Shown in pieces: positions 4,058-63,488 of a stretch of 64,000 nucleotides of DNA. Within the stretch, counting starts at the first letter, position 1. Every line of letters starts with the position of its first letter. Source of the stretch: Actinomycetospora sp. NBRC 106378. GTDB taxonomy: Bacteria; Actinomycetota; Actinomycetes; Mycobacteriales; Pseudonocardiaceae. The position numbers and the translations under genes were made by a program. The notes beneath the pieces were generated by a model. It was not told the origin of the DNA, did no database searches, and was given only the letters and a program-made list of their open reading frames with translations. The stretch is from positions 1 to 64,000 of the forward strand of contig NZ_BSTT01000016.1 in the NCBI RefSeq assembly GCF_030269685.1. Reading direction: 5' to 3'.

Positions 4058-4117
4058 ATGTGGCTTCTCTGCCGCTGGACGACAGCAACGACGCTTTCCT
4101 GCCACGGGGGCAGGGGC
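4058..4117 (+). repeat. Dispersed element A, copy 1 (intergenic)
   Basis: Begins ATGTGGCTTCTCTGCC, contains the full 20-bp core GACAGCAACGACGCTTTCCT at 4081-4100, and ends in GCCACGGGGGCAGGGGC. It fills almost all of the gap between the MATE gene and rbfA. Other copies are near 14464, 38233, 40141 and 63427. Confidence 0.8.
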
Positions 4118-4121
4118 GGGG

Positions 4122-4574
4122 TCAGGACTCGTCGTCCGGATCCTCGTCGTCGTCCTCGTGCGGCTTGCGGTACGGGTCGGACTCGCCGGCGTAGGTCGCA
4201 CCCGCGGCGAGCGAGGCGACCTCCTGGTCGGCGGCGCGCACCCCGGCGAGCAGCTCCTCCATGCGGGCGGCGCCCTCGGGCACCGCGTCGGCCACGAAGG
4301 CGATCGACGGGGTGTGGCGGACGCCGGTCTGGCGGCCGACCGCGGTGCGGACCACGCCGGTCGCGCTGGCGAGAGCGGCCGCGGAGTTCTCGTGGTCGGT
4401 CTCGTCGCCGTAGACCGTGTAGTAGACCGTCGCCTCGCGGAGGTCCGCGGTGACCCGGGCGTCGGTGATGGTGACCAGCTTCAGACGCGGGTCCTTCACC
4501 TCGTGCTCGAGGGTCGAGGCGGCGATCTGGATGATCCGCTTGGCGAGGCGCCGGGCGCGGGGTGCATCGGCCAT
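4122..4574 (-). CDS. rbfA: 30S ribosome-binding factor RbfA
   Basis: Binds the 30S subunit during late 16S rRNA 5'-end maturation. The 150-residue protein has the RbfA KH-like fold pattern: [41 protein letters not shown], and [10 protein letters not shown] near residue 100. The C-terminal tail after about residue 125 is acidic ([11 protein letters not shown]), as is common in actinobacterial RbfA. It lies 21 bp downstream of the DUF503 gene in the infB operon. Confidence 0.95.
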
Positions 4575-4595
4575 CTCGGGCCATCCTCCAACAGA

Positions 4596-4901
4596 TCAGT
4601 CGTCGTGCGGGCCCAGCCATCGGGTCCGCGCGGAGAGCACCTGGAACTCGGGGTGTGAGCTGACCAGGCGCTCGCAGTGGTCGAGCACGTCACCGACGTG
4701 CTCGGCGTCCGCGGCCACCACCGCCACGCCGATGAGGGCGCGGCGGTGGAGGTCGAGGTGTCCGGCCTCGGCGACCGAGACCGCGTACTTCCGCTTCAGC
4801 TCGGCGACGACGGGTCGCACGATCGAGCGCTTCTGCTTGATCGAGGACACGTCGCCGAGCAGCAGGTCCAGCTCGAGGGTGCCGACGTACACCGTCAGCA
4901 C
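4596..4901 (-). CDS. DUF503 (YlxP-like) protein
   Basis: A small, 101-residue protein of the DUF503 family, usually encoded between infB and rbfA and presumed to act in ribosome or translation function. Visible family features are the N-terminal strand VYVGTLELDLLLGDVSSIKQKRS, the central LKRKYAVSVAEAGHLDLHRRALIGVAVV and the C-terminal helix with VLDHCERLV. Start is GTG 4901; the Shine-Dalgarno is weak, consistent with coupling to infB, which ends 22 bp upstream. Biochemical role of the family is not established. Confidence 0.9.
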   Translation of the reverse strand: MLTVYVGTLELDLLLGDVSSIKQKRSIVRPVVAELKRKYAVSVAEAGHLDLHRRALIGVAVVAADAEHVGDVLDHCERLVSSHPEFQVLSARTRWLGPHDD

Positions 4902-4923
4902 CCCCGGGCCGGGTTCACGACCG

Positions 4924-8055
<3,132 letters not shown>

Positions 8056-8116
8056 TGATCTCCTCATTCTCGAGGTCGGCGGCGTGCCCGCGACCTCGTG
8101 TCCTACGCCTGCGCGC

Positions 8117-8506
8117 TCATCGCGAGTGCTTCACGGCTGGCTCATGGGGGTCGACCTGCTTCCTGGTTCTCCGACCCCGACGGGCGTCGGGGCCTGCGCC
8201 CGGGTCGGTCGGTGTCGGTTGCGGTGCGAGCAGCGCGTGCAGGGCACCGAGGTCCAGCGGCCCCGGGACGCGCAGCGCCCGGGGGAACGCCGATCGGCGC
8301 TCCGCGCGGTGCAGACAGTCGGCGTCGGGGTGCATCCAGGCACCCCGCCCCGGCTCGCGACGCCGTGGGTCGGGCACACAGGTCCCGTCCACGGCCACCA
8401 CTCGCAGCAGTTCCGACACCGGCCCCCGCGATCGGCACCCCACACAGGTACGCACCGGTCCTTCGATCGGTGGAACTTCGTGGTGAGCCGGACGGGTCCG
8501 GGCCAT
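8117..8506 (-). CDS. ylxR: YlxR family RNA-binding protein (DUF448)
   Basis: Small nucleic-acid-binding protein found between nusA and infB. The 129-residue version has the YlxR core: [12 protein letters not shown] near residue 18, and [15 protein letters not shown], where the RGA-W motif lines the predicted RNA-binding cleft. The C-terminal 35 residues are a basic tail. ATG 8506 is used; a GTG at 8554, right after the nusA stop, is an alternative that would add 16 residues. Confidence 0.9.
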
Positions 8507-8556
8507 GTCTGACTCTACCGCGTCACGCGATCGTTGCCGAAGCCCCGTCTCCACCC

Positions 8557-9555
8557 TCAGGGCGCGACCAGGTCGGACCCGGGTTCGGCGTCCGACCGGA
8601 TGTCGATCCGCCAGCCCGTCAGCCGGGCGGCGAGGCGGGCGTTCTGCCCCTCCTTGCCGATGGCCAGCGACAGCTGGTAGTCCGGCACGACGACGCGGGC
8701 CGCCCGGGCGCGGAGGTCGACCACCTCGACCGAGACCACCTTCGACGGCGAGAGGGCGTTGCCCACGAACTCCGCCGGGTCGTCCGAGTGGTCGATGATG
8801 TCGATCTTCTCGCCGTGCAGCTCGTCCATCACGCCGCGCACCCGCGCGCCCATCGGGCCGATGCAGGCGCCCTTGGCGTTCAGGCCGGGCACGGTGGACC
8901 GGACGGCGATCTTGGAGCGGTAGCCCGCCTCCCGCGCGATGGCGGTGATCTCCACCGCCCCGCTGGCGATCTCGGGGACCTCGAAGGCGAACAGCTTGCG
9001 CACGAGGTTGGGGTGGGTCCGCGAGAGCGTGACCGCCGTCCCCCGCGGGGTCCGGCTCACCCCGACCACGTAACAGCGCACCCGCTCGCCGTGTTCCAGC
9101 TTCTCGCCCGGGACCTGCTCGGCCGAGGGAATGACGCCCTCGATCGTGCCGATGTCGACGACGACGACACCGCGGGCGTTCGCCCGTGCGTCCCGCTGCA
9201 CGACGCCGGACACGACCTCGCCCTCGCGGGTGGCGTACTCGCCGTAGCTGCGGTCGTTCTCCGCGTCGCGCAGCTTCGCGACGACGACCTGCCGGGCCGT
9301 CGCGGCCGCGATCCGGTCGAAGCCCGCCGGGGTGTCGTCGACCTCGCCGACCGTCTCGCCGTCCTCGCCCGTCTCGGGCACGAGGACGCGGATCTCACCC
9401 GAGGCGCGGTCCACCTCGGCGCGCGCGCCCGGGGTCTCGTTGCCGGCCTGGCGGTAGGCGGTCAGCAGGGCCGACTCGATGGCCGCGACGACCGTCTCGA
9501 AGGTGATGTCCTTGTCGCGCTCGATCGCGCGCAGGGCCATCAGGTCGACCTTCAC
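8557..9555 (-). CDS. nusA: Transcription termination/antitermination factor NusA
   Basis: RNA polymerase-associated factor that modulates pausing, termination and antitermination. The 332-residue protein has the N-terminal polymerase-binding domain ([21 protein letters not shown]), an S1 domain (residues about 120-190, [12 protein letters not shown]), and two KH domains ([12 protein letters not shown] and [15 protein letters not shown]). It lacks the C-terminal acidic repeats of proteobacteria, as is usual in actinobacteria. GTG 9555 has AAGGAG upstream and overlaps the rimP stop by four bases (GTGA), indicating translational coupling. Confidence 0.95.
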
Positions 9556-10121
9556 CGCGACTGCTCCTTCTCTCGTCGATCGTCCTGCAGTGCCTCGACC
9601 TGCGCCTCGGGCGCGGGCTTGAACTCGACCTCGACCCCGGCCCGCTCCACCTGCGCGAGCGGGACCTCCTGCAGCCCCTTCTCGACGGCGAGCGTGACGG
9701 CCTCGTCGGTCACGGCGCCGACCCGGCCCGAGAGCTTCGTGCCGTCGACGAGGGTGACCGCCACGCGGCGCAGCCACGCCTTGCGCCAGTGCCGCGGCTC
9801 GGTGAGCGGCCGGTCGGTACCGGGGGTGGAGACCTCGAGGGTGTACTCACCCAGGAGCGCGCCGTGCGACTCCTCGTGGGCGTCGACGGCGGTCGACACG
9901 TCGCGGCTGAGCGCGGCGACGGCGTCGAGGTCCACGCCGCCGGCGGGACCGTCGTCGACGGCGGGCGCGTCGGGCGTGTCGACGGTGACGCGCACGACCT
10001 GACGGCGGCCGGCGGGCCGTACGTCGAGGTCGTCGAGCACGAAGCCGGCCCGCTCGACGACGTCGACCACGACGGGCGTCAGGGCGGTGGCGGCGGCACC
10101 GGTGGGTGGGCCCACGGGCAC
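9552..10121 (-). CDS. rimP: Ribosome maturation factor RimP
   Basis: Needed for 30S maturation, acting on the S12 region. The 189-residue protein shows the two-domain RimP pattern: N-terminal alpha/beta part ([23 protein letters not shown]), the central junction [26 protein letters not shown], then an SH3-like domain. First gene of the minus-strand rimP-nusA-ylxR-infB block. Two adjacent GTG starts (10121 and 10115) are possible. The C-terminus overlaps the nusA start. Confidence 0.95.
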
Positions 10122-10182
10122 GGGTCAGCCTCCAGGACGGGTGAGGGAGCGGTGTCCCCACAGTAGTCCCGCCCCGACGGGC

Positions 10183-10278
10183 CCCGTCGCTCCGCTCGCC
10201 CCGCCCGCCGATCCCCCGTCGCCCCGCTCGCCCCGCCCACCGATCCCCCGTCGCTCCGCTCGCCCCACCCACCGGCTG
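10183..10278. repeat. Three tandem 32-bp repeats, intergenic
   Basis: Units begin at 10183, 10215 and 10247 with CCCGTCGCTCCGCTCGCCCC or a near match. They lie between the divergent rimP and lipoprotein genes, so any promoters for either must be embedded in or beside them. The period is not a multiple of three, which argues against coding. Confidence 0.8.
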
Positions 10279-10293
10279 GCACGATGACCGGTG

Positions 10294-11213: not shown

Positions 11214-11231
11214 GCCGCCGGGGTCCCTTGT

Positions 11232-11249
11232 TTACCGATCAGACGGTAA
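11232..11249. promoter_or_regulatory. TetR-type operator-like inverted repeat at the 3' end of tetR
   Basis: TTACCG-ATCAGA-CGGTAA, half-sites identical in design to the operator in the tetR promoter at 11830-11847. It lies between the DUF4439 stop and the tetR stop, with no gene start beside it. Confidence 0.55.
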
Positions 11250-11261
11250 GTAAGCTGCTCC

Positions 11262-13659: not shown

Positions 13660-14445
13660 TCACCCACCCGGCCGACGCCGCTCCCCGATCCGCGCGACCA
13701 TCGGGGTGAGGGTCCGCGCGGCCACCGGCAGCATCGACTGCGTCCGGGTGAGCCAGCCGCGCCAGCCCGGCAGCACTCGCAGCTCCCGGCGCCCGTCGAG
13801 CATCGCGATCCCCGCGGCCACCACCTCGTCGACGCCGAGCACCCGCGGGCCGGTGAACAGCAGCGCCGAGGACGGGCGGTCGGACACCGCCCGCAGCAGC
13901 TCGGTCGACACCGCGTCGGGGCACAGCGCGAGGCAGCGGATCGGGCGGCGGGCGCCGCCGAGCTCGATGTGCAGGGCCTGGGAGTAGGAGAGCGCAGCGG
14001 CCTTGGAGGCGCCGTAGATCGCGAGACCCGGCGTCGGGCCGAGGCCGGAGAGCGAGACGACGTTGAGGATGTCGCCGCGGCGCATCACGTCGACGGCCGC
14101 GCGGCAGCCGTGGACGACGCCGAGGGTGTTGATCTCGATCGTCGAGGTCACCTCGGCGTCGGTGGCCTCCCACACCGACGCGGTGGAGAGCACGCCCGCG
14201 TTGTTGACCCACACGGTGACCTCGCCGAGGTCGGCCGCCGCGGCGGCGACCGAGCGGTGGGCGCCGGGATCGCGCACGTCGAGCGGTAGCGCGGTGGCGG
14301 GCCCGGGCAGCGCGTCCGCGGTCCGGGTCGCGGCGGCGCCGTCGACGTCGGTGACCACGACGTGCAGGCCGCGCTCGGAGAGCGCCCGCGCCAGGCCGGC
14401 GCCGATACCCCGTCCTCCGCCGGTCACGACGGCGACGTCGGTCAT
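13660..14445 (-). CDS. SDR family oxidoreductase
   Basis: A 261-residue NAD(P)-dependent short-chain dehydrogenase: TGGGRGIGAGLA cofactor loop, Asp after the second strand (VVTDVDG), NNAG, Ser in NVVSLSG, and YGASK. The C-terminal 40 residues (RVLPGWRGWLTRTQSMLPVAARTLTP) form the amphipathic tail seen in the SDR subgroup near lipid or steroid metabolism. The start ATG 14445 follows GGGAGAGGGAGG. That Shine-Dalgarno directly abuts repeat element A; the open frame runs back through the repeat but lacks a better start. Confidence 0.85.
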   Translation of the reverse strand: MTDVAVVTGGGRGIGAGLARALSERGLHVVVTDVDGAAATRTADALPGPATALPLDVRDPGAHRSVAAAAADLGEVTVWVNNAGVLSTASVWEATDAEVTSTIEINTLGVVHGCRAAVDVMRRGDILNVVSLSGLGPTPGLAIYGASKAAALSYSQALHIELGGARRPIRCLALCPDAVSTELLRAVSDRPSSALLFTGPRVLGVDEVVAAGIAMLDGRRELRVLPGWRGWLTRTQSMLPVAARTLTPMVARIGERRRPGG

Positions 14446-14463: not shown

Positions 14464-14511
14464 GTGGCAGCAAAGCGTCGTTGCTGTCATCCAGTGGCAG
14501 TAGAGCCGCAT
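14464..14511 (-). repeat. Dispersed element A, copy 2 (intergenic)
   Basis: Read on the minus strand it starts ATGCGGCTCTACTGCCACTG and continues through the A core (one base differs) to GCTGCCACGAG, 18 bp before the SDR start. A family B motif lies 22 bp beyond its other end. Confidence 0.8.
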
Positions 14512-14533
14512 CCTCGCGGCGGGAGTCTCGCGC

Positions 14534-14570: not shown

Positions 14571-14981
14571 ATGCGCAGCGAGGAGATCGAGGTCCGCACC
14601 GGCGGCCAGGAGACGGTCCGGGACATCACGGCGGAGTGCGAGCGGTTCCTGCGCGACGTGGGCGCGGACGACGGCCTGCTGCACGTGTTCGTGCCGCATG
14701 CGACCGCCGGGATCGCGGTAATCGAGACGGGCGCCGGGTCGGACTCCGACCTGCTCGCGCAGCTGCACGAGATCCTCCCGGCCGACGACCGCTGGGGGCA
14801 CCGCCACGGCTCCCCCGGCCACGGGCGCGACCACGTGCTGCCCGCGCTGGTCGCGCCGTCGATGACGGTGCCCGTCCTCGGCGGCCGGATGACCCTCGGC
14901 ACGTGGCAGTCGGTGTGCCTGGTCGACACCAACGGCGACAACCCGTCGCGCAAGATTCGTCTCAGCCTGCTCGCGGGCTGA
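14571..14981 (+). CDS. YjbQ family protein (secondary thiamine-phosphate synthase type)
   Basis: A 136-residue member of the UPF0047/YjbQ family. The family pattern is clear: GLLHVFVPHATAGIAVIETG (conserved His), DDRWGHRHGSPGHGRDHVLPALVAPS (conserved His cluster) and GTWQSVCLVDTNGDNPSRKI at the end. Some members replace ThiE weakly; the physiological role is unsettled. Start ATG 14571. It is followed after 18 bp by menJ on the same strand. Confidence 0.9.
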   Translation: MRSEEIEVRTGGQETVRDITAECERFLRDVGADDGLLHVFVPHATAGIAVIETGAGSDSDLLAQLHEILPADDRWGHRHGSPGHGRDHVLPALVAPSMTVPVLGGRMTLGTWQSVCLVDTNGDNPSRKIRLSLLAG

Positions 14982-36833: not shown

Positions 36834-37175
36834 TCAGTGCGCCAGCGCCACCGTCACCATCCGGCCCCGCCGCTTCTCGACGACGAGCTCGCCCACCCCG
36901 CCGAGCTCGCGCGCCGCCAGGATCGCCGCCGCCTCCGCGACCGACCCGGTCCCGGTGAGGCGCCGGACCACCGCGGAGGGGTTCGGGACGTGGACGGCGT
37001 CGAGCTCCGCCGTGGTGAACAGCAGGAGCTTGCAGCCGTGCGCGACGGCCTCGATCGCCGGCTCGCCCAGCCGACGGTCGATCGTCGCGACGGCGTCGTA
37101 GGCCAGGTCGCCGACCGCCTCCCGCAGGAACTCGGCGGGCGTCCCGGGCTCGACGCCCACGCCGAGCACGATCAC
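36834..37175 (-). CDS. CobE/CbiG C-terminal domain protein
   Basis: A 113-residue protein matching the C-terminal domain of CbiG/CobE: LGVGVEPGTPAEFLREAV at the start, GEPAIEAVAHGCKLLLFTTAELDAV, and NPSAVVRRLTGTGSVAEAAAILAA, the usual conserved V-RxTG-gSVaE-AAl pattern. CobE is associated with the cobalamin ring-contraction/rearrangement steps. GTG 37175 overlaps the cobB stop by four bases (GTGA). Confidence 0.85.
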   Translation of the reverse strand: MIVLGVGVEPGTPAEFLREAVGDLAYDAVATIDRRLGEPAIEAVAHGCKLLLFTTAELDAVHVPNPSAVVRRLTGTGSVAEAAAILAARELGGVGELVVEKRRGRMVTVALAH

Positions 37176-38599
37176 GGTGGGCCGACCAGGCCGGCCACGA
37201 ACCGCCGTACCGCCTGCGGCCGGCCGGCCGGGTGGGTGTGCAGGTAGGAGGCGTGGACGTTCCCCTGGACGTAGCCCTCGGTCGTGTCGTTCCACGCCCA
37301 GGCGGGGTCCGGGCCGGCCTGCGGGGTGGTCACCGTGCGGTGGAACTCGTGGCCGGTCACGACCTCGCCCCGCGCGGCCACCGGGGAGTCGGTCACCGCG
37401 GTGGCGGTCCGATACCCCAGCGTCAGGCGCGGGCCCATCGCGGCCTCGGCGTCGAGCACCCCGCACATCGGGGCGCCGTCGAGCGACCGCCCGAGGTAGA
37501 GCAGACCGCCGCACTCGGCGTGGACGGCACCACCGGCCGTCGTGAAGGCGTGGATCGCAGAACGGAGCGCGACGTTGGCCGAGAGATCCTCGAGGTGCTC
37601 CTCCGGGAAGCCGCCGGGCAGGACGAGGGCGGCGGTGCGATCGGGCAGCGCCTCGTCGCGCAGCGGGTCCACGACGACGACCTCGCCGCCGGCCGCCTGC
37701 AGGAGCTCGGCGTGCTCGGGGTAGCCGAACGTGAACGCCGGTCCGCCCGCGACGGCGACGACGCGGCGCGCGCGACGATCGGTCGGCCCGACCTCGAGCA
37801 CCGGGTCCCACGGCTCCACCGGGGTGGCGGGCGCGCTCCGGGCGAGCCGCTCGACGGCGTCGAGGTCCACGTGCCGGGCGACCAGTGCCGTCATGGCGTC
37901 GACGGCGGCACGCGCGTCGGCGCCGTGCTCCGCGGCCGTGATCAGCCCGAGGTGGCGCGACGGCACGGCGAGCTCGGCCCGGCGCGGGACCACGCCGAGC
38001 ACCGGGACCCCGACCTCCGCGCACGCCACCCGCAGTGCGTCCGCGTGCCGCTCGGTGCCGACCCGGTTGAGGATCACGCCGGCCGGCGCGACCCGCGGGT
38101 CGAAGGTGCGGAACCCGTGCAGCAGCGCCGCGACCGACCGGTGCTGCCCGCGCGCGTCGACGACCAGCACCACCGGCGCGTCGAGCACGCGCGCGACGTG
38201 GGCGGTGGACCCGTCGTCGGGACCGTCCTCCGGTGGAAGGAAAGCGTCGTTGCTGCCACCGGGCGACAGCAACGACGCGTTCCTGCCACCCGGGGAGAGC
38301 CGCCCGTCGAACAGCCCCATCACGCCCTCGACGACGGCCAACGCCGCTCCGGACGCGCCGTGCGCCACGAGCGGGGCGAGGCGGTCGGCGCCGCAGAGCA
38401 CCGGGTCGAGGTTGCGGCCCGGGCGCCCCGAGGCGAGGGCGTGGTACCCGGGGTCGACGTAGTCCGGGCCGATCTTGAACGGCGCGGGCACCGTGCCGCG
38501 GGCCGCCAGCGCGCCCAGCAGCCCCGTCGTGATCGTGGTCTTCCCGCTTCCCGACGACGGGGCCGCGATCACCACGCGCGGGGGCAGGACGGCGCTCAT
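37172..38599 (-). CDS. cobB: Cobyrinate a,c-diamide synthase CobB with a repeat-derived loop insertion
   Basis: Glutamine- and ATP-dependent amidation of the corrin ring side chains a and c. The 475-residue protein has the P-loop APSSGSGKTT, KIGPDYVDPGYH, VVEGVMGLFDG, and a C-terminal triad GATase region (HAECGGLLYLG). Between GLFDG and STAHVARVLDAP, where the family normally has only a short loop, about 25 extra residues appear (LSPGGRNASLLSPGGSNDAF, then LPPEDGPDD), encoded by two inverted copies of element A plus a family B motif. The frame is intact and the rest is well conserved, so it is probably functional. Confidence 0.95.
   Translation of the reverse strand: MSAVLPPRVVIAAPSSGSGKTTITTGLLGALAARGTVPAPFKIGPDYVDPGYHALASGRPGRNLDPVLCGADRLAPLVAHGASGAALAVVEGVMGLFDGRLSPGGRNASLLSPGGSNDAFLPPEDGPDDGSTAHVARVLDAPVVLVVDARGQHRSVAALLHGFRTFDPRVAPAGVILNRVGTERHADALRVACAEVGVPVLGVVPRRAELAVPSRHLGLITAAEHGADARAAVDAMTALVARHVDLDAVERLARSAPATPVEPWDPVLEVGPTDRRARRVVAVAGGPAFTFGYPEHAELLQAAGGEVVVVDPLRDEALPDRTAALVLPGGFPEEHLEDLSANVALRSAIHAFTTAGGAVHAECGGLLYLGRSLDGAPMCGVLDAEAAMGPRLTLGYRTATAVTDSPVAARGEVVTGHEFHRTVTTPQAGPDPAWAWNDTTEGYVQGNVHASYLHTHPAGRPQAVRRFVAGLVGPP
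38208..38222. repeat. Family B motif inside cobB
   Basis: GACCCGTCGTCGGGA, encoding PDDGS on the minus strand, 11 bp from element A copy 3. Confidence 0.65.
38233..38289. repeat. Dispersed element A, copy 3: inverted pair inside cobB
   Basis: Two A cores face each other: minus-oriented at 38233-38255 and plus-oriented at 38265-38289. The result is a long inverted repeat (AAAGCGTCGTTGCTG against CAGCAACGACGCGTT) in the middle of the coding sequence. Confidence 0.8.
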
Positions 38600-39306: not shown

Positions 39307-41454
39307 TCAGGCGCCGACGGCGGTCCGGGCCACCGCCGCGACGCTCTCGCCGGTCAGTTCGTCGAGAGTCACGATCGCACCTGCGGCCGCGCCGGCGATC
39401 CGACCGGCCAGCCCCAGACGCACGTGCCCGGACTCGCAGTCGACGACGACGGTGCTCATCGCCGCTCCCCCGCGGCCCGGTCCGGCCTCGCGGGCGAGAC
39501 CCCGTGCCGCGTCGAGCGCCGCGTCGAGCGGTCTCGGACCACCCACCGTCGCGCGCCCGTCGGTCAGCACGACGAGCAGCCCGCGGCGGCGGGGATCGCG
39601 CACGCGCTCGGCGCGCAAGACCCGGCGGGCGGTCCGCAGACCCTCGGCGAGCGGGGTGCGGCCCCCGGTGCGCAGGTCGGCGAGCCGGGCGTGTGCGGTG
39701 TGCACGCTGGAGGTGGGTGGCAGCGCGACGGCCGCGCCGGTGCCGTTGAAGGTCACGACCCCGACCTTGTCCCGCCGCTGGTAGGCGTCCCGCAGCAGCG
39801 CGTCGACCGCGCCCGTGACGGCCGACATCCGCTTCCGCGCGGCCATCGAACCGGAGGTGTCGACACAGAACAGCACGAGGTTGCCCTCGCGGCCCTCACG
39901 GTGGGCGTGCCGGAGATCGTCCGGTCCCGGCCGCCCTCGCCGCCCGCTGCGGATGCTGGCGAGCACCGTCGCCGGCACGTGCGGGGCCGGTCCCGACTCC
40001 GGCGCCTCCGCCACCGCCCGCACCGTCCGACCGCGGCGACCGCGCGCCCGGGACCGACGGCCCGGGACGCCCTCGCCGACGCCGTGCACCTCGAAGCGGC
40101 GGCTCTTCAACCGGACGCGCTGCGGGGCCCCCGCCGGCGACAGGAAAGGGTCGTTGCTGTCATCCAGTGGCAGAGAATCCGCATCGTCGGTCCCGCTCCC
40201 CCGTCCCGACGCCGGCCCGGGTCGGCTCGGGGGCGTGGGTGCGGTCTCCGCTCCGGGTCGCTCCGACCCGGAGCCGGAGCCGCTGCCCGGTCCACCCTCC
40301 GCGCCACCCTCCCGGGGAGCCGCCGTCGACCCGTCGTCGGGACCGGACCCGTCGTCGGGACCCTGGTCGTCGGGGCCGGAGCCCGGCCCGCCGGGACCGT
40401 CGTCGTCGGGATCGTCGTCCGGGCTGTCGTCGTCCAGGTCCTGCACCGCCTGCTCGGCCGCCTCGAGCGCCTTCTCGAGCTCCTCGTCGGACAGGTGCGG
40501 CTCGTCGAACGGGTCGCGGCGGCGCCGGTGCGGGAGGGCGAGGCGGGCCGCGGCGCGGACGTCGTCGACGTCGACCGCGTCGGCGCCGCGCCACGCGGCG
40601 TGCGCGACCGCCGTCCGGGCCACGACGACGTCGGCGCGCATACCGTCGACCTCGACGAACGCGCAGACCGCGGAGATGCGGACCAGCTCGCGGTCGGTGA
40701 GCGACACCGACCCGAGCCGGTCCCGGGCGGCGGCGAGCCGGGCGCGCAGGGCGTCCTCGTCACCAGCGAACCGGGACGCGAACGCCGTCGGGTCCGCGTC
40801 GTGGGCCAGCCGGCGGCGCACCACCTCTGTGCGCTCGGCGACGACCCGCGAGGCCTCGACGCGGACGGTGAGCCCGAAGCGGTCGAGCAGCTGCGGGCGG
40901 AGTTCGCCCTCCTCCGGGTTCATCGTCCCGACCAGCAGGAACCGGGCCGGGTGCGTGAACGAGACGCCGTCGCGCTCGACGTGCGAGCGCCCGGAGGCGG
41001 CGGCGTCGAGCAGGAGGTCGACGAGATGGTCGTGCAGGAGGTTGACCTCGTCGACGTAGAGGACACCACGGTGGGCGAGCGCCAGCAGTCCGGGCTGCAC
41101 GGCACCGCGCCCGTGGGCGAGGACCTCCTGCAGGTCGAGCGAGCCGATCAGGCGGTCCTCGGACGCGCCCACGGGCAGCTCGACGAGGCGGGCGGGGCGC
41201 TGCTCGACGGGGACGTCGGGTCCGAACGGTCCGTCCGGGCTCTCCTCGCCCGCCTCGACGTCGACCCCGAACCGGTCCCCGGCGCGCACCGCGACGTCGG
41301 GCAGCAGCGTCGCGAGGGCGCGGACGATCGTCGACTTCGCCGTGCCCTTCTCCCCGCGGACCAGCACGCCGCCGATACCCGGGTCGACCGCGGAGAGCAG
41401 GAGCGCGAGCCGCAGGTCCGGGTGGCCGACGACGGCCGAGAAGGGGAACGCCAC
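39307..41454 (-). CDS. Magnesium/cobalt chelatase-type AAA-VWA fusion protein
   Basis: 715 aa. The AAA+ BchI-like half has Walker A GEKGTAKS near residue 35 and VLYVDEVNLLHD; the C-terminal half is a von Willebrand A domain with MIDAS motif VDTSGSM near residue 535. It equals Rv2850c of M. tuberculosis in order and design and probably serves cobalt insertion with CobN. The middle linker (about residues 345-440) is acidic and Gly-rich; it contains GPDDGSGPDDGST from two family B motifs (40328-40342, 40346-40360) and SLPLDDSNDPFLSPAG from element A. Start ATG 41454. Confidence 0.88.
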   Translation of the reverse strand: MAFPFSAVVGHPDLRLALLLSAVDPGIGGVLVRGEKGTAKSTIVRALATLLPDVAVRAGDRFGVDVEAGEESPDGPFGPDVPVEQRPARLVELPVGASEDRLIGSLDLQEVLAHGRGAVQPGLLALAHRGVLYVDEVNLLHDHLVDLLLDAAASGRSHVERDGVSFTHPARFLLVGTMNPEEGELRPQLLDRFGLTVRVEASRVVAERTEVVRRRLAHDADPTAFASRFAGDEDALRARLAAARDRLGSVSLTDRELVRISAVCAFVEVDGMRADVVVARTAVAHAAWRGADAVDVDDVRAAARLALPHRRRRDPFDEPHLSDEELEKALEAAEQAVQDLDDDSPDDDPDDDGPGGPGSGPDDQGPDDGSGPDDGSTAAPREGGAEGGPGSGSGSGSERPGAETAPTPPSRPGPASGRGSGTDDADSLPLDDSNDPFLSPAGAPQRVRLKSRRFEVHGVGEGVPGRRSRARGRRGRTVRAVAEAPESGPAPHVPATVLASIRSGRRGRPGPDDLRHAHREGREGNLVLFCVDTSGSMAARKRMSAVTGAVDALLRDAYQRRDKVGVVTFNGTGAAVALPPTSSVHTAHARLADLRTGGRTPLAEGLRTARRVLRAERVRDPRRRGLLVVLTDGRATVGGPRPLDAALDAARGLAREAGPGRGGAAMSTVVVDCESGHVRLGLAGRIAGAAAGAIVTLDELTGESVAAVARTAVGA
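40141..40184 (-). repeat. Dispersed element A, copy 4, inside the chelatase gene
   Basis: Minus strand reads ATGCGGATTCTCTGCCACTG then ATGACAGCAACGACCCTTTC. Encodes ADSLPLDDSNDPFLSP in the interdomain linker without a frame break. Confidence 0.8.
40328..40360. repeat. Two adjacent family B motifs in the chelatase linker
   Basis: GACCCGTCGTCGGGA occurs twice, 18 bp apart start to start, encoding two GPDDGS units. Confidence 0.7.
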
Positions 41455-55719: not shown

Positions 55720-55734
55720 GCGCAGAGCATGTCA

Positions 55735-55805: not shown

Positions 55806-55821
55806 ACCGAGGAGACCGGCC

Positions 55822-56283: not shown

Positions 56284-56309
56284 TCGGGCCCGCCGATACC
56301 GTGCGCCGG

Positions 56310-57533
56310 ATGAGCGAGCGCGAGCACGACGTCGTCCTCTACGGCGCCACCAGCTTCGTCGGGGCCCTCACCGCCGACTACCTGGCCCGGCACGCCCCGA
56401 CCGGGGCACGGATCGCGCTGGCCGGTCGGTCCCGGGCGAAACTCGAGTCGGTCCGCGCCGGGCTGCCCGCACCGGGGAGCGACTGGCCGCTGATCGTCGC
56501 CGACTCGACCGACCGCGCGGCCCTCGACGCGATGGTGTCCTCGACGACCGCGATCGCGTCGACCGTCGGCCCCTACGCCAAGTTCGGGCTGCCGCTGGTC
56601 GAGGCGGCCGCGGCGGCGGGCACCCACTACGCCGACCTCACCGGCGAGGTCACGTTCGCGCGGGAGGCGATCGACGCGACGGACGCGGTGGCGCAGCGGA
56701 CCGGCGCCCGCATCGTGCACTCCTGCGGCTACGACTCGATCCCCTCCGACCTCGGGGTCCTCCTCCTGCACGCGCAGGTCCAGGCCGACGGCGAGGGAGA
56801 GCTGACCGACGTCACGACGGTCGCCCGCGTCCGGGGCGGGGTCTCCGGCGGCACGATCGACTCGATGCGCGGTCTCGCCGACACCGTCAAGTCCGACCGC
56901 GCGACGGTGAAGCTGCTGCGCGACCCGTACGGCCTCTCCCCCGACCGTGGGGGCGAGCCCGACACCCGCCAGCCCAGTGACAGCCCCGCGCCCCACCGGC
57001 TCCCGGACGGGAAGTGGGCGGCGCCGTTCGTCATGGCCTCCTACAACACGCGCATCGTGCGGCGCTCCAACGCGATCGCCGGCTACTCCTACGGCAAGGG
57101 CCTGCGCTACGGCGAGGTCATGGCCACGGGCGCCGGTCCGGTCGGCGCCGTGACCGCGGGTGCCGTGACGGCGGGTCTCGGGGCGATGCTCGCCGGATTC
57201 GCGACGCCGGGTGCGCGCCAGCTCCTCGACCGCGTCCTCCCGAAGCCGGGCGAGGGCCCGTCGGAGGAGACGCGCCGCAAGGGCTTCTTCCGCCACGACC
57301 TCGACGCCGTCACCACGACGGGCGCGCACTACACCGGACGCGTCTCCGGGTCCGGCGACCCCGGCTACGCGGCCACCGCGGTGATGCTCGGCGAGTCGGT
57401 GCTCTGCCTCGCCCTCGACGGCGACCGGCTGCCCTCGCGCGCCGGTTCGCTCACACCCGCCACCGCCATGGGGCCCGCCCTGGTCGAGCGGCTGCGCACC
57501 GCCGGGCACGTCTACGAGGCCGCCCGCGCATGA
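56310..57533 (+). CDS. Saccharopine-dehydrogenase-like trans-acting enoyl reductase family protein
   Basis: 407 residues. N-terminal VLYGATSFVGALTADYL, ASTVGPYAKFGLPLVEAAAAAG, HYADLTGE, HSCGYDSIPSDLGV match the mycobacterial saccharopine-like proteins (Rv2449c, and Rv2953, a trans-acting enoyl reductase of lipid synthesis). Start ATG 56310, 26 bp after the Ddn-like gene; overlaps the methyltransferase by four bases. Substrate here unknown; a lipid or polyketide step is possible. Confidence 0.82.
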   Translation: MSEREHDVVLYGATSFVGALTADYLARHAPTGARIALAGRSRAKLESVRAGLPAPGSDWPLIVADSTDRAALDAMVSSTTAIASTVGPYAKFGLPLVEAAAAAGTHYADLTGEVTFAREAIDATDAVAQRTGARIVHSCGYDSIPSDLGVLLLHAQVQADGEGELTDVTTVARVRGGVSGGTIDSMRGLADTVKSDRATVKLLRDPYGLSPDRGGEPDTRQPSDSPAPHRLPDGKWAAPFVMASYNTRIVRRSNAIAGYSYGKGLRYGEVMATGAGPVGAVTAGAVTAGLGAMLAGFATPGARQLLDRVLPKPGEGPSEETRRKGFFRHDLDAVTTTGAHYTGRVSGSGDPGYAATAVMLGESVLCLALDGDRLPSRAGSLTPATAMGPALVERLRTAGHVYEAARA

Positions 57534-58402
57534 GCGAGACCCACGGCCACGGACACGGGCACGGCCACGGCCACGGGCACGACGGGGGCGGCGCGGACAT
57601 GGCCGAGGTGCTCGACCTCGACGCCGTGGTGTTCGCCGACCTCCTCGCCGACATCGTGTCCGGGCTCCCCGTCGCGGACGCCCCCGGCCGCATCGTCGAC
57701 CTCGGCGCCGGGACGGGGGTCGGCACGTTCGCCCTGCTCGAGCGCTTCCCGGACGCGCACGTGACCGCCCTCGACTCCTCCGCCGCCCACCTGCGGCGGC
57801 TGCAGGAGAAGGCCGACGGCGCCGGGTGGGCCGGGCAGGTGGACGTCGTCCCCGCGGACCTCGACGCCGAGGCCCTCCCCCTCGGGACGCCGGACCTGGT
57901 GTGGGCGTCCGCGTCGCTGCACCACGTCGCCGACCCGGACCGCGTCCTGCGCCGGGTGCGGGAGGCCCTGGCCCCCGACGGCCTGCTCGTCGTCGTCGAG
58001 ATCGACGGGTTCCCGCGGTTCCTGCCCGACGACGCCCCGGAGGACCGCCCGGGCCTCGAGGCGCGCTGCCGCGCCGTGGCCGACCGGCTCGCGATGGCGC
58101 AGATGCCCCACCGGAACGCGGACTTCACGCCGCTGCTCGAGGCGGCCGGCTTCCGCGTCGAGCAGCACCGCACCGTCACCGCGACGGTCGACGGCTCGCA
58201 GTCGGGGGCGGTGCACCGCTACGCGTTCGAGGGACTGCGCCGCCTCCGCGACGGCGTCGCCGACGAGTTGTCCGGCGAGGACCTCGCGGCACTGGACCGG
58301 CTCGTCGATTCGGACGGCCCGGGGAGCATCCTCCGCCGGGACGACCTCGTGGTGCGGACGACCCGTCCGGTCTGGGCCGTCCGGCCGAACGCCCGCGATT
58401 GA
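57530..58402 (+). CDS. SAM-dependent methyltransferase with His-rich N-terminus
   Basis: 290 residues. Class I fold with motif I VDLGAGTGVGTFALLE, ALDSS after strand 2, DLVWASASLHHV and GLLVVVEIDG. The first 20 residues contain eight His alternating with Gly (THGHGHGH...), a natural metal-binding or flexible tag ahead of the domain. Overlaps the upstream gene (ATGA). Substrate unknown. Confidence 0.8.
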   Translation: MSETHGHGHGHGHGHGHDGGGADMAEVLDLDAVVFADLLADIVSGLPVADAPGRIVDLGAGTGVGTFALLERFPDAHVTALDSSAAHLRRLQEKADGAGWAGQVDVVPADLDAEALPLGTPDLVWASASLHHVADPDRVLRRVREALAPDGLLVVVEIDGFPRFLPDDAPEDRPGLEARCRAVADRLAMAQMPHRNADFTPLLEAAGFRVEQHRTVTATVDGSQSGAVHRYAFEGLRRLRDGVADELSGEDLAALDRLVDSDGPGSILRRDDLVVRTTRPVWAVRPNARD

Positions 58403-58493
58403 GACGTGCACGATCGGGGCACGCTCCCCCGTGTCGACCGGTCGTGTGCCGCACGACCCGGTCCGCCCCGACTTCCCCGAGGAAAGGACGACC

Positions 58494-58970
58494 GTGAGCG
58501 AGCAGCAGACCGTCACCAAGACCGTGGACGCCACCCCGGAGCAGATCTTCGACCTGCTCTCCCGCCCGGAGCGCCACACCGAGTTCGACGGTGCAGGCAT
58601 GCTCCAGGGCCTCGACTCGGGCCCGGACAAGGTCTCGAAGCCGGGCGACGAGTTCGTCATGAACATGACCAACGATGCGCTCGGCCCGTACCAGATGAAG
58701 AACGAGGTCACCTCGTTCGAGGAGAACCGCGAGATCGGCTGGGCGCCGTCGATGCACCCGATCGACGCGCAGAAGGACAAGCTGGGCGACGTCCGCGCCG
58801 AGGGCCACACCTGGACCTGGAAGCTCGAGCCGGCCGGCTCGGGCACGCAGGTCACGCAGGTCTACGACTGGTCCGGCGTGAAGGACGAGCAGTTCCGGGG
58901 CTTCTTCCCGATGGTCACCGAGGACCAGATGAGCGAGACGATCGACAAGGTCGCGAACGCCGCGAAGTAG
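58494..58970 (+). CDS. SRPBCC family protein
   Basis: 158 residues of the START/SRPBCC superfamily: VTKTVDATPEQIFDLLSRPERHTEFDG at the start, then YQMKNEVTSFEENREIGW and WTWKLEPAGSGTQVTQVYDWSG. Such proteins bind a hydrophobic ligand in a helix-grip fold. GTG 58494 with AAAGGA before it is taken rather than the longer frame from 58431. Confidence 0.82.
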   Translation: MSEQQTVTKTVDATPEQIFDLLSRPERHTEFDGAGMLQGLDSGPDKVSKPGDEFVMNMTNDALGPYQMKNEVTSFEENREIGWAPSMHPIDAQKDKLGDVRAEGHTWTWKLEPAGSGTQVTQVYDWSGVKDEQFRGFFPMVTEDQMSETIDKVANAAK

Positions 58971-58974
58971 TCGC

Positions 58975-60522
58975 TCAGGGCGCGCCGGCCGGGGGCACCA
59001 CCCGCAGCCCGGCCGGCGCACCCCGCTCGATCAGCCGTGTGAGGGCTGCCGTGTCGAGGTTGGACTCCACGAGGTCCGCGAGCAGGTCGAGCTGGGCGGT
59101 CCGCGTCGCCGCGAACGACGTCGTCGTCGAGACCCGGAAGTCGCGCCCGGTCGCCGCGGCGACCCGCGCCAGCACCCGTCGTCGGAACCCGTCGTTCTCC
59201 AGCAGGCCGTGCCAGTGCGTCCCCAGCACGGTCCCGACGTCGAGCCCTTCCGGGGCTCCGTCGGCCGTCGTCACCAACGCTGCACCATCGCCGCGGACCT
59301 CGCGCCCGTGGTGGATCTCGTAGCCCGCGACCTCCTCGCCCAGGGCCGTACCCGTCGGGTTGCCGAGATGCTTGTCGGGGTCGAAGACGACGTCGAACTC
59401 GCCGAGCCCGAGGCCCTCGTGGCGTCCCGGAGCGGCCTCGACGCCGTGCGGGTCGTCGATCGTCCGCGCGAGCATCTGGTAGCCGCCACAGATCCCGAGC
59501 AGCGGACGCCCGGCGCGGGCGTGGGCGAGGACGGCGTCCGCGAGGCCCGACGAGCGCAGCCAGGCCAGGTCGGAGACGGTCGTCTTCGAGCCCGGCAGGA
59601 CGACGAGGTCGGCCCCGACGAGCTCGGACGGCGCGGTCACGTAGCGGACCGAGACCCCGGGCTCGCAGGCGAGGGCGTCGACGTCGGTGCCGTTCGAGAC
59701 CCGGGGCAGGCGCACGACCGCGACCCGTAACCAGTCCCGACCCAGCGGGGCGGCGGGGCGGCCGACGGCGCCGTCGTGACCGAGGGAGTCCTCCGCGTCG
59801 ACCCACAGGTCGGGGGCGAACGGGATCACGCCCAGCGTGGGCCGGCCGGTGAGGCGCTCGAGCTGGGCGAGGCCGGGTTCCAGCAGGGCGGGGTCGCCGC
59901 GGAACTTGTTGACGACGAAGCCGCTGATCAGGGCCTGGTCGGCCGGCTCGAGCACGGCGAGCGTGCCGAAGAGGTGGGCGAGCACGCCGCCGCGGTCGAT
60001 GTCCCCGACGACGATCGTCGGTAGGTCCCCCGCGCGGGCGAGCCCCATGTTCGCGATGTCGGTGGCGCGCAGGTTGATCTCGGCCGGGGAGCCGGCGCCC
60101 TCGCAGATCACGACGTCGTGCTCCGCGCGCAGCCGCGCGAGACCCGCCGTCACGATCTCGAGCAGGGCCGGCTTGCGCTCGCGGTAGGACAGCGCGCTGA
60201 CGTTGCCGTCGACCCGGCCGTGGACGACGACCTGGCTGGTCCGGTCGCTGCCCGGCTTGAGCAGCACCGGGTTGAAGGCGACGCTCGGCGCGAGGCCGCA
60301 CGCCGCCGCCTGCAGGGCCTGGGCCCGGCCGATCTCGCCGCCGTCGAGGGTGACGACGGAGTTGTTGCTCATGTTCTGCGCCTTGAACGGCGCCACGTCG
60401 ACGCCCTGGCGGGCGAGCCAGCGGCACAGACCGGTCACGAGGACGCTCTTCCCCGCGTCGCTGGTGGTCCCCGCGACGAGGAGGGCGCCCTGCACGATCC
60501 GAGCGTAGGAGGCGGAGATCAC
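58975..60522 (-). CDS. cobQ: Cobyric acid synthase CobQ
   Basis: Amidates the remaining b, d, e and g side chains of adenosylcobyrinic acid diamide. About 515 residues: P-loop [41 protein letters not shown], GATase Cys in [10 protein letters not shown] and His in [10 protein letters not shown]. The start is GTG 60522 or GTG 60495; neither has a clear Shine-Dalgarno. It lies about 20 kb from cobB and cobO, so the pathway is split over two loci. Confidence 0.93.
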
Positions 60523-60640
60523 CGGCCGGGCGCCCACCCGTCGTCCTCGGCGTGCGCCGTGCCTGTTGCCCGCCCGACGTCCCGCCCGGCATCGTCGACC
60601 TCGACGTCGACCGACGTCCGCCCCGAGCCCAGGAGACGCG

Positions 60641-61675
60641 ATGCCCGCCCCCACCGACTTCGAGGTCTTCGGCCTCGGCGACGTGGTCCTGCAGCACGGC
60701 GCGACGCTGCGGGACGCCCACCTGGCGTACAAGACGTACGGCACGCTGAACGCCGACAAGAGCAACGCGATCGTCTATCCCACCTGGTACTCCGGGCGGC
60801 ACACCGACAACGAGTGGCTGATCGGCACCGACAAGGCCCTGAACCCCGACGAGTGGTTCGTCATCGTGCCGAACATGCTCGGCAACGGGCTGTCCTCCTC
60901 GCCCAGCAACACGCCGCCGCCCTACGACCGCGCGCGCTTCCCGCACGTGACCTTCCACGACCAGGTCGAGTGCCAGTACCGCCTCGTCACCGAGCACTTC
61001 GGCATCGAGACGCTGCCGCTGGTGACCGGCTGGTCGATGGGCGCCGGCCAGACCTACCAGTGGGCCGTGAGCCACCCCGAGATGGTGCAGCGGGCCGTGC
61101 CGTTCTGCGGGTCGAGCCGCACCGCGCCGCACAACCGCGTGTTCCTCGACTCGATCGCGGCGGCGCTGCGGGCCGACGCCGCCTTCGCCGGCGGCTGGTA
61201 CCGCGAGGACGCCTGGCCGACGACGGGCCTGCGGGCGTTCGCGCGGGTCTACGCCGGGTGGGGCTTCTCGCAGGCGTTCTACTGGCAGGAGGAATGGCGC
61301 AAGCTCGGGTTCTCCTCCCTCGAGGACTTCCTCATCGGCTTCTGGGAGGCGTTCTTCCTCGACGAGCGCGACCCGAACAACCTGCTGGCCATGATCTGGA
61401 CGTGGTTCCACGGTGACGTCGGGCAGACCCCGGGGTTCGGCGGCGACACCGTCGCCGCGCTCAACTCCATCCGCTGTCCCCTGCTCGCGATGCCGGCCGA
61501 GAAGGACCTCTACTTCCCGCCCGAGGACGAGCAGTGGGCCTCCCAGCACATCCCCGACGGCGAGGTCCGCGTCATCCCCGGGGTGTGGGGCCACTTCGCG
61601 GGCGGCGGGCTGAACCCCGACGACACCGCCTTCATCGACCAGGGCATCCGGGACATGCTCGCCCGGGAGGTGTGA
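60641..61675 (+). CDS. MetX-family alpha/beta hydrolase-fold acyltransferase-like protein
   Basis: 344 residues related to homoserine O-acetyltransferase. [26 protein letters not shown], nucleophile Ser in [14 protein letters not shown], Asp in [12 protein letters not shown] and His in [10 protein letters not shown] form the triad. True MetX has GGSMGGMQALEWA and a lid with specific Arg; the different elbow suggests an esterase or other acyl transfer. ATG 60641 follows AGGAGA. Confidence 0.8.
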
Positions 61676-61686
61676 GCGGGTCCTGA

Positions 61687-61929
61687 TCAGATCGTGGGTC
61701 GGTCGCCCTCGGCGTGCCAGGGCACCACCCCGATCAGCACGTCCGGCAGATCCGCCACGTCGAACTCGAGCCGGCGCCAGAAGGCGCGCTCCCCCGCGTC
61801 GGCCCGTGTTCGGTACGGACCGAAGCAGTCGCCGTGCCCGGTCACGGGGTCGATCACCAGGATCATGTAGCCGTCCGCGTCGGACGTCCCGTCCTCGTCG
61901 CACGCCCGCGGGGTCTCCTCGGTGAACAT
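61687..61929 (-). CDS. Small hypothetical protein, 80 aa
   Basis: Not recognised. Acidic, soluble; reads like a single alpha/beta unit (YMILVIDPVTGHGDCFGPYRT, AGERAFWRRLEFDVAD, VLIGVVPWH). ATG 61929, GAGGCGGAC upstream. Sequence periodicity and third-base GC bias support coding. It sits alone between the MetX-like gene and the DUF222 gene. Confidence 0.6.
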   Translation of the reverse strand: MFTEETPRACDEDGTSDADGYMILVIDPVTGHGDCFGPYRTRADAGERAFWRRLEFDVADLPDVLIGVVPWHAEGDRPTI

Positions 61930-62070
61930 GTCCGCCTCCTGCTCGTCCTCGGCCGGGTGGCTCCCGGCCCGTCGAGGAGAAGAGTCGTCCGCTCGGGCCG
62001 GAGGTGGTGTCCGGCGACGGCACCGTGCTCCGGAGGACCCACCTGTCCCCCGGTCGTCGGACGGCGCGGC

Positions 62071-63366
62071 TCATGGTCCGGCTCGGCTGGTGTAGGTGTG
62101 TCCGGTCGGGGTGGTGGTCTGGACGGTGTGGGGTTGGTCGCCGAGGCCGTCGTGGAGGACCTCGTGGTGCCACCCGGGGAGTTCCTTGTCCTCGTTGTGG
62201 CGCACGCAGCCACCGCGGCCGTTCCCGAAACTGGTCGGGCCGCCGGCTTTGCGGCCTGTGATGTGGTCGAGGTGGCGGATCGGGGCGTCGCAGAAGGGTT
62301 CGCGGCACCAGCCGTGGTCGCGCCAGGTGACCAGCTTCGCGAGGAACCCGTCGAACAACCGCCGCTGCGGGTCACCCCCGACCAGGCCGCCGTGGGCGGG
62401 GTGGGCGAACAGTCGCCGCCACCACCGCTGCCCGCCGGTGTAGCGCAGCAGGTCGGAGACGATCCCGGACGGCAGCGGCCCGTGCCCGACCAGTTCGGCG
62501 GTCTTCGGGCTGTCCGGGTCGGTCAACGCGTCGAGCGGGAGCACGATCCCGACCTCGACGTTGACGTCCTCGGCGTAGACCTGTCCGGTGAGTCGTTCGA
62601 CGAGGGTGTCGGCGATGATCTGATCCCGGGTGCGGTCGTCGGTGTCCCCGGTCGCGATCAACGAGTCGGCGTACTGCCGTAGCGCCGTGATGCAGGCGAC
62701 GCCCTGCTCGACGGGCAGCAGGCCGGAGAGCACGGCCATGGTGTCCGGGGCGGGGCGCAGGGTGACCCGGCGGTCCTTGCGGGCGGTGCGCCCGCGGGCG
62801 GTGAATCCGATGGGGTCGGCCTCGTAGGCGAGTTTCTTCACCGCCGCGACCGCGGCCTTGCGGCCCAGTTCGTCGAGCCCGGCCTCGGCGGCCTGCTTGT
62901 CGACCAGGCGGCGGGTCTCGGGGTCGAGGTGGGAGGTCAACGAGACGATCTGCTCGGCGAGCCATTCGCTGATCCGCCCGGCGGCGAGCAGCGCCCGGGT
63001 ACACGGCAGGTCCGTGGCCAACGCCCGCGCGGCGTTCAGGCGTCGGTCGGCGACGTGTGGGGAGACGTGTGCGGCCAGGGCGATCTGGTCGGCGATGCCG
63101 CGCCCGAGTTTCTCCGGGTCCAACCGGCCGGTGGCGATCTGGGCGAGCTGCGCTTCGACCTGGGCACGCCCGAACGCGACCATCGCGGTGTGCTGCGCCG
63201 CCGCGACCGCGGACCGGACCTGCTCCAGGACCGCGATCCGGTCGATCTGGGCGGCGCCGTCGTCACCAGGAGCCGGGTCGGTGGGGAGTTCGGCGAGTTC
63301 GCTGAGGCGGGTGAGCAGCGCGGTCAGCTCCTCGCCGACCGCGTCCACCGCCTCGTTCGAACTCAT
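62071..63366 (-). CDS. DUF222 / HNH endonuclease domain protein (13E12-repeat type)
   Basis: 431 residues. Residues 20-330 match DUF222 (AQHTAMVAFGRAQVEAQLAQ, AARALATDLPCTRALLAAGRI, KQAAEAGLDELGRKAA, VTLRPAPDTMAVLSGLLP), followed by a C-terminal HNH motif (CREPFCDAPIRHLDHI, GGPTSFGNG, C-x2-HN). These multi-copy genes are common in actinobacteria and suspected to be mobile or selfish. The DNA is slightly less biased in codon use than the cob genes. Confidence 0.85.
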   Translation of the reverse strand: MSSNEAVDAVGEELTALLTRLSELAELPTDPAPGDDGAAQIDRIAVLEQVRSAVAAAQHTAMVAFGRAQVEAQLAQIATGRLDPEKLGRGIADQIALAAHVSPHVADRRLNAARALATDLPCTRALLAAGRISEWLAEQIVSLTSHLDPETRRLVDKQAAEAGLDELGRKAAVAAVKKLAYEADPIGFTARGRTARKDRRVTLRPAPDTMAVLSGLLPVEQGVACITALRQYADSLIATGDTDDRTRDQIIADTLVERLTGQVYAEDVNVEVGIVLPLDALTDPDSPKTAELVGHGPLPSGIVSDLLRYTGGQRWWRRLFAHPAHGGLVGGDPQRRLFDGFLAKLVTWRDHGWCREPFCDAPIRHLDHITGRKAGGPTSFGNGRGGCVRHNEDKELPGWHHEVLHDGLGDQPHTVQTTTPTGHTYTSRAGP

Positions 63367-63426
63367 GTTCGCAAGCTAGCAGCGACCCCCGACAGTCACG
63401 GCCAGTCCAGCGCCGCCACCAGCGAG

Positions 63427-63488
63427 GATGCGGCGAACCTGGCGTCCAGTGACAGCAACGACGCTTTCCTGCCACGAAAGCAGGGGCC
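63427..63488 (+). repeat. Dispersed element A, copy 5 (intergenic)
   Basis: Contains the full 20-bp core GACAGCAACGACGCTTTCCT at 63451-63470 and ends GCCACGAAAGCAGGGGC like copy 1. The left part has diverged. Located between the DUF222 gene and the SDR. Confidence 0.8.

What the first reader, a model, noticed from the sequence alone, without database searches (positions are those of the whole stretch)
4058..63488. New dispersed palindrome-containing element (family A), partly inside genes
Core GACAGCAACGACGCTTTCCT recurs at 4081, 14464 (minus), 38233/38265 (inverted pair), 40141 (minus) and 63451. Three loci share a left flank beginning ATGYGG followed by NTTCTCTGCC or similar, and two share the right end GCAGGGGC. 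Copies occur in both orientations, three between genes and two within coding sequences kept in frame. This resembles Rickettsia palindromic elements in concept, but I know of no described equivalent for this sequence.
Basis: partly seen in the sequence, partly recalled or inferred. Interest (0 to 1): 0.75.

Follow-up and report, generated by a model that had tools for sequence, protein, structure and literature searches.

The report
Shape-shifting hairpin repeats after stop codons
A short hairpin-forming DNA repeat has spread to well over a hundred places in this soil actinobacterium's genome, mostly just after the stop codons of genes, and related species carry their own re-spelled versions, sometimes in the very same slots; what copies it is unknown.

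Summary
The core occurs 6 times in the window (0.01 expected) and 253 times in the genome, an Actinomycetospora. It is one arm of a 53-57 bp element: a perfect hairpin (two inverted arms, 7-nt loop) or an asymmetric form with a degenerate right arm. Empty sites in relatives (in-frame in cobB: 10 of 16 lack 63-66 bp) show gain. Of 56 sampled intergenic asymmetric copies, 46 face a stop codon, at a median 13 nt; 42 lie within 31 nt, against 8% for random placement. Species differ in stem sequence, with compensatory changes. Relative G006 has its own version (80 matches), partly in the same gene-3'-end slots (4 of 13 against 2 of 446). One species of another genus has 115 arms of a similar palindrome; that version is absent from 6 congeners. 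It behaves like REP elements, but no RAYT transposase was found and neither known REP tag fits. Best reading: a RAYT-less, REP-like palindromic mobile element settled at gene 3' ends. The copying machinery and any function are inferred; one species' version (G005) does not follow the stop-codon rule.

The parts
4053..4105 (-). Asymmetric element, 16 nt after the stop codon of the RBFA-domain gene 4122-4574 (-), before the MatE gene 2698-4044 (-)
   Evidence: occupied in G014 and G002, diverged in G016, shorter in G006
14464..14516 (+). Asymmetric element between divergent genes (short-chain dehydrogenase 13660-14445 - and UPF0047 gene 14571-14981 +); an exception to the stop-codon rule
   Evidence: occupied in G016 and G002; other stem versions in G014, G006, G015, G009; empty in 7 relatives
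38233..38289 (.). Symmetric palindrome, in-frame insertion in a cobB-like gene
   Evidence: 10 of 16 relatives empty by 63 or 66 bp; G015, G009 and G013 hold a different palindrome in the same place
40137..40189 (+). Asymmetric element, read through in frame on the - strand, between the AAA lid and VWA domains of a Mg-chelatase-like gene
63423..63475 (-). Asymmetric element, 82 nt after the stop of the short-chain dehydrogenase gene 63558-63998 (-, runs to the window end)
   Evidence: occupied in G014
37172..38599 (-). Gene carrying the 38233 insertion (CbiA + GATase_3; cobyrinate a,c-diamide synthase type)
39307..41454 (-). Gene carrying the 40137 insertion (Mg_chelatase, AAA lid, VWA)

Best explanation
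A REP-like, non-autonomous palindromic mobile element. SHOWN: the unit is a ~25-nt arm (in most versions GTGNCAG..CTGNC) that can fold on its own; two units in inverted orientation with a 7-nt loop make a perfect hairpin, and one unit plus a degenerate partner makes the asymmetric form. It was gained at defined sites, is abundant in some lineages only, and in other species is replaced by differently spelled, still self-complementary versions. INFERRED: copies are made in trans by an unidentified enzyme that reads the hairpin. Insertions survive mainly just past stop codons, where a hairpin at the mRNA's 3' end does little harm or helps (protecting or ending the transcript, or slowing terminating ribosomes as reported for E. 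coli REPs), and more rarely in frame inside genes, in a frame that gives a mild hydrophilic peptide (..LLSPGDSNDAFLP). When the spreading version changes, its new copies spread and partly reoccupy the same slots.
For: 253 matches against 1 control match. At <=1 mismatch 5 of 18 same-genus genomes match (191, 113, 97, 33 and 3) and 0 of 23 outside the genus. Covariance model R1: 18 of 18 genus genomes match; of 120 family genomes 13 match: 5 Actinomycetospora (20-48, capped at 48), G051 (39) and seven with one each; 107 have none. Empty sites: cobB, 10 of 16 relatives, 63-66 bp shorter; others. In tandem gaps 34 of 37 asymmetric copies turn the 5' end to the stop; 42 of 56 intergenic asymmetric copies lie within 31 nt of a stop (random 8.4%); the symmetric form is in convergent gaps in 18 of 32, against 27 of 241 background gaps. 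Compensatory change: unit hairpin 4 pairs, reached by 5 of 500 shuffles; pair 4-24 is C-G, G-U or U-A over 9 versions, and 9 of 25 full-palindrome pairs differ compensatorily among three versions. G006's own version, 80 matches; shared slots 4 of 13 against 2 of 446. G051: 115 arms, 0 in 6 congeners; an arm within 13 nt of a stop in 10 of 10 fetched loci, one of them overlapping it. G009's version: 7 of 10 within 31 nt. In 14 slot comparisons the left arm is 96% identical, flanks 73-78%.
Against: No mobiliser found: no Y1_Tnp, no RAYT, only ordinary-looking genes between close copies. No clear target-site duplication in the empty-site pairs. Orthologous copies are more alike than shuffled pairs (0.89 against 0.77, 21 pairs with a few duplicates), so many A copies are inherited rather than recently moved. 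The conserved left arm could mean selection rather than recent copying. The G005 version does not follow the stop rule (1 of 8 within 31 nt) and G006's only in part (10 of 19 arms); the window itself gives one clear case in five.
Confidence: 0.72

Rival explanations
1. Not mobile: a functional 3'-end motif (binding site or RNA processing/termination signal) kept by selection, whose sequence switched in each lineage together with a trans-acting factor.
For: Position and orientation after stop codons, symmetric form between convergent genes, left arm 96% identical at shared slots while flanks are 73-78%, slot sharing with G006.
Against: Precise empty sites in relatives and in-frame insertions inside genes, 115 arms in one species of another genus with none of that version in six congeners, 0 to 191 matches per genome within the genus at <=1 mismatch. 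No T-run follows the hairpin, so not a classical intrinsic terminator.
Confidence: 0.13
2. A REP in the strict sense, spread by a RAYT tyrosine transposase that has since been lost or is too diverged to detect.
For: Copy number, dimers, position and species-specific classes match published REPs (PMC3733652, PMC3686654); REPs abundant without their RAYT, perhaps after RAYT loss, are described (PMC3686654, passages).
Against: No Y1_Tnp in 18 genus genomes and no REP_Tyr_transpos in 8 genomes including G051, while both searches ring in control genomes. The unpaired GTRG tag is not met: base 4 varies and is paired.
Confidence: 0.07
3. In-place homogenisation: old hairpins inherited in their slots are rewritten by template switching or gene conversion between copies, so the version change needs no new insertions.
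For: Four of 13 slots hold family A in G000 and v6 in G006; arms stay complementary.
Against: Conversion over 25-57 bp tracts at that many dispersed sites is not known to me; 9 of 13 A slots have no v6 in G006 (one of these nine holds yet another hairpin), and other versions persist beside family A.
Confidence: 0.05
4. A MITE: terminal inverted repeats of a DDE insertion sequence that moves it in trans.
For: Inverted-repeat structure and patchy distribution.
Against: No clear target duplication, no obvious transposase in the intervals read, and the whole element is arms plus a 7-nt loop. Insertion sequences were not surveyed genome-wide.
Confidence: 0.03

Closest known systems
REP elements / BIMEs (GTAG-tagged, RAYT-associated)
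   Same: 20-40 nt imperfect palindromic units, inverted dimers, hundreds of copies, species-specific classes; convergent REPs <20 bp from both 3' ends, unidirectional REPs near the upstream 3' end, some in frame inside genes (PMC3733652: abstract, passages, section 15)
   Different: No unpaired GTRG tag, no RAYT in the genomes searched. Host is an actinobacterium: PMC3733652 has 0 occurrences of 'actinobacteria' or 'actinomycet', though it names untagged REP-like sequences in M. tuberculosis, and PMC12306157 lists predicted REPs in three Actinomycetota genomes
CGTC-tagged REPs (include Rickettsia RPE-4/RPE-6 and Neisseria dRS3)
   Same: Apparently no dedicated transposase (PMC3733652, abstract and passages); some lie in frame inside genes. 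CATCGTCG ends the asymmetric form and ATCCA lies in its loop
   Different: The order CGTC - stem beginning AT - CCA is not present; arms and loop length differ
Rickettsia palindromic elements (RPE-1 type)
   Same: Palindromic, in-frame insertions giving a conserved peptide (PMC10969869, passages)
   Different: RPEs there are ~150 bp; here 53-57 bp and mostly outside genes (22 of 111 sampled copies inside)
MITEs
   Same: Short, inverted-repeat, patchy distribution
   Different: No clear target duplication and no parent insertion sequence seen (not surveyed genome-wide)

Membership tests
RAYT-associated REP | High-copy short palindromic unit, often in inverted dimers | tested here: met
RAYT-associated REP | Unpaired GTAG/GTGG tetranucleotide next to the palindrome | tested here: not met
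   Base 4 is G, C or T by version and pairs (G-U included) with base 24 in 9 of 9 versions
RAYT-associated REP | RAYT gene in the genome, flanked by inverted copies | tested here: not met
   PF01797 0 of 18 genomes; NF047646 0 of 8; both rang in control genomes
RAYT-associated REP | Lies near gene 3' ends, mainly in convergent and unidirectional gaps | tested here: met
   Family A; not met by the G005 version (1 of 8)
CGTC-tagged REP / RPE-4, RPE-6 | CGTC tag, 8-9 bp stem beginning with AT pairs, 4-5 nt loop, CCA tail | tested here: not met
   Consensus compared by eye with the description in PMC3733652
Rickettsia palindromic element | In-frame insertion in protein genes with a conserved peptide | tested here: met
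   22 of 111 sampled copies (about 15 loci), checked against orthologs for two
MITE | Target-site duplication | tested here: inconclusive
   No clear duplication, but few closely matched empty sites
MITE | Parent insertion sequence with the same ends | not tested
   Only genes between some close copies were read
Intrinsic terminator | Run of T after the hairpin | tested here: not met
   Downstream consensus is G/C-rich

The most novel reading that the evidence does not exclude
A new class of hairpin-specific mobile element in Actinobacteria that spreads without any RAYT, by an undescribed enzyme that reads the unit hairpin. Because different versions turn up in the same slots past the stop codons, the enzyme may recognise 3'-end hairpins already there and overwrite them, so that host genes keep a hairpin while its spelling changes with each wave; its presence in one species of another genus suggests it can cross genera.
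Probability: 0.25. Interest if true: 0.8.

Novelty: new variant of a known kind. Interest (0 to 1): 0.6.

Why it matters
CGTC-type REPs, which include some Rickettsia palindromic elements, apparently lack a dedicated transposase (PMC3733652). Here is another kind without either known tag: high copy number, closely related genomes that differ in version, a one-contig genome (G002), and one species of another genus whose six held congeners lack its version. That makes the question of what copies RAYT-less palindromes testable by gene presence/absence. The slot sharing also gives a natural test of whether bacterial 3'-end hairpins matter to the host irrespective of their sequence.

Tried and rejected
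RAYT or other Y1 transposase: none. Plasmid or phage reservoir: no match at blastn with the 57-nt consensus. Enclosed mobiliser between close inverted copies: intervals read hold ordinary-looking genes (AbiEi/DUF559-like, FAD monooxygenase, GIY-YIG-like, transglycosylase, thioesterase, SDR, mannosidase; these names are my reading of the sequences, not a family search). One long hairpin as the conserved fold of the asymmetric form: 1 compensatory pair, no better than shuffles; the unit hairpin is favoured. Known RNA family: no Rfam match in the window. Homogenisation of family A since the split of G000 from G016/G002/G014: not supported, orthologs are more alike than shuffled pairs. Literature; no paper on such repeats in Actinomycetospora appeared in the listings.

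Limits: the 111 copies pool five genomes (G000, G002, G014, G016, G006), copies at shared slots count more than once, and many loci were fetched by exact core match. Gene calls come from my own codon-usage finder; five of the 22 in-gene calls lie in the first 7% of the gene and may be start errors, and by eye the 22 stand for about 15 loci. In one search two of the four jointly occupied slots flank one small gene. R1 also gave one match in G087, a congener of G051. The G009, G005 and G051 loci are the ten best-scoring each, not a random draw; two G005 loci gave no arm. The shared-slot comparison leaves out six sites that were in genes or doubtful.

Full report
CHECK. The core GACAGCAACGACGCTTTCCT is found 6 times in the window, at five loci, with 0.01 expected, and 253 times in the 6.3-Mb genome against 1 match for the reversed pattern; a full hairpin counts twice.

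ANATOMY. Lining up 157 arms gives sharp borders. Symmetric form: a C-rich flank, GTGGCAGGAAAGCGTCGTTGCTGTC, a 7-nt loop, GACAGCAACGACGCTTTCCTGCCAC, a G-rich flank. Asymmetric form: the same left arm, then ATCCAGTGGCAGGAACGCCGCATCGTCG. The symmetric form folds into one long hairpin (-76 kcal/mol, z -15, for a consensus with flanks I wrote). Across versions the conserved fold of the asymmetric form is the arm itself: columns 1-10 with 18-27 show compensatory changes, whereas the long asymmetric hairpin does not.

PLACE IN THE GENOME. Of 111 distinct copies with context, pooled from five genomes, 22 lie inside genes, 88 between genes and 1 at an edge. Among 56 intergenic asymmetric copies, 46 turn their GTGG end to a stop codon, at a median of 13 nt, and 42 lie within 31 nt; random placement gives 8.4%. 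In tandem gaps 34 of 37 have this orientation. The symmetric form prefers convergent gaps: 18 of 32, against 27 of 241 background gaps of 50 bp or more and 12 of 56 asymmetric copies. Of the 22 in-gene copies (about 15 loci), the 11 symmetric ones share one frame; of the 11 asymmetric ones 8 share one frame on the opposite strand, 2 one frame on the same strand, and 1 is different. The commonest peptide ends in DSNDAFLP. In the window only 4053-4105 is a clear stop-codon case (16 nt); two copies are in genes, one lies in a divergent gap and one 82 nt past a stop.

GAIN AND INHERITANCE. In the cobB-like gene the insertion is missing, by 63 or 66 bp, in 10 of 16 relatives. G015, G009 and G013 carry a different palindrome at the same spot, G014 a decayed copy, G016 an elaborated one, and G008 an unrelated longer insert. 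Further empty sites are listed. Within the carrier clade most comparable sites are shared (G000 against G016: 14 rows occupied, 2 empty, 3 other, some sites counted twice), and over 21 shared pairs (a few duplicated) orthologous copies are more alike than shuffled pairs (0.89 against 0.77). In 14 intergenic slot comparisons the left arm is 96% identical, the adjoining flanks 73-78%: the arm is constrained or refreshed.

VERSIONS. G006, 80-86% identical to G000 over the syntenic stretch, has 80 matches to GTGTCAGCAGTGCGGCCATGCTGAC; apart from three weak relatives in G010, the 17 other genus genomes have none. Among 459 mapped orthologous gene 3' ends, 13 have family A in G000, 6 have v6 in G006, and 4 have both (p=5.7e-6; two of the four flank one small gene). 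G009, G005 and G015 show further versions, and older relics lie beside family A. A covariance model finds the family in 18 of 18 genus genomes; among 120 family genomes 13 match, 5 of them Actinomycetospora, G051 with 39, and seven with one each. G051's version, GTGCCATGAAAGTGCCGTTGCTGGC with a 7-nt loop, has 115 arms at <=2 mismatches and is absent from six congeners; all 10 fetched loci have an arm within 13 nt of a stop codon, one overlapping it. The full palindromes of A, G015 and G051 keep 24 of 25 pairs in all three, 9 of them by compensatory difference. G009's version: 7 of 10 within 31 nt. Against the rule: G005's version has only 1 of 8 arms within 31 nt of a stop, and G006's 10 of 19.

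MECHANISM. No Y1 or RAYT transposase was found and no mobiliser was evident between close copies. Published REPs share the position, the dimers and the in-gene copies (PMC3733652: abstract, passages and section 15). REPs within 15 nt of a stop codon are reported to stall ribosomes (PMC12306157: abstract and passages). REP classes change at orthologous RAYT loci (PMC3686654: passages). So the element works like a REP, but fails the tag and RAYT tests. I commit to a RAYT-less mobile palindrome that survives mainly at gene 3' ends. The copying enzyme, the role of the C-rich spacer and any benefit to the host are inference.

NOVELTY. New variant of a known kind. Searches for a prior description listed none; this covers only the held library. 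Untagged REP-like sequences in M. tuberculosis (named in PMC3733652) and predicted REPs in Actinomycetota (PMC12306157) are on record; I did not compare sequences with them.

Noticed in passing
Genus-wide, e.g. G015 L150:2579, G011 L157:7146, G000:C1:168656: A second dispersed hairpin family: 40 bp, ends GTGAG..CTCAC, 4-nt loop, interior hypervariable but self-complementary, differing between species; seen in 14 of the 17 genus genomes of which I held sequence (my count).
   Followed up: partly
G000:C1:145974, G002 L147:2097, G016 L148:13133: A third, shorter unit, GTGTCAGCCGTGTGCCACCGCTGAC and its reverse, scattered in the carrier clade and possibly an older version of the same superfamily.
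   Followed up: no
window 1-128: The contig begins in a ~128-bp repeat with 97-100% identical copies elsewhere in G000 and G002, besides more diverged ones; perhaps the end of an insertion sequence.
   Followed up: no
flanks of several copies, e.g. near window 38226 and 40190: CCCGACGACGGGTCGG-like words recur near the elements and some form hairpins of their own.
   Followed up: no
G008 L156, cobB-like gene at the window 38233 site: A tandemly repeated insert unrelated to the palindromes sits at the same cobB site in G008, so the site tolerates several kinds of insertion.
   Followed up: no
G000:C1:195980-197215: An AbiEi/DUF559-like gene (my reading of the sequence) sits between two inverted copies in G000; in G006 v6 copies flank the corresponding interval, and the gene is much less conserved than its neighbours.
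   Followed up: partly
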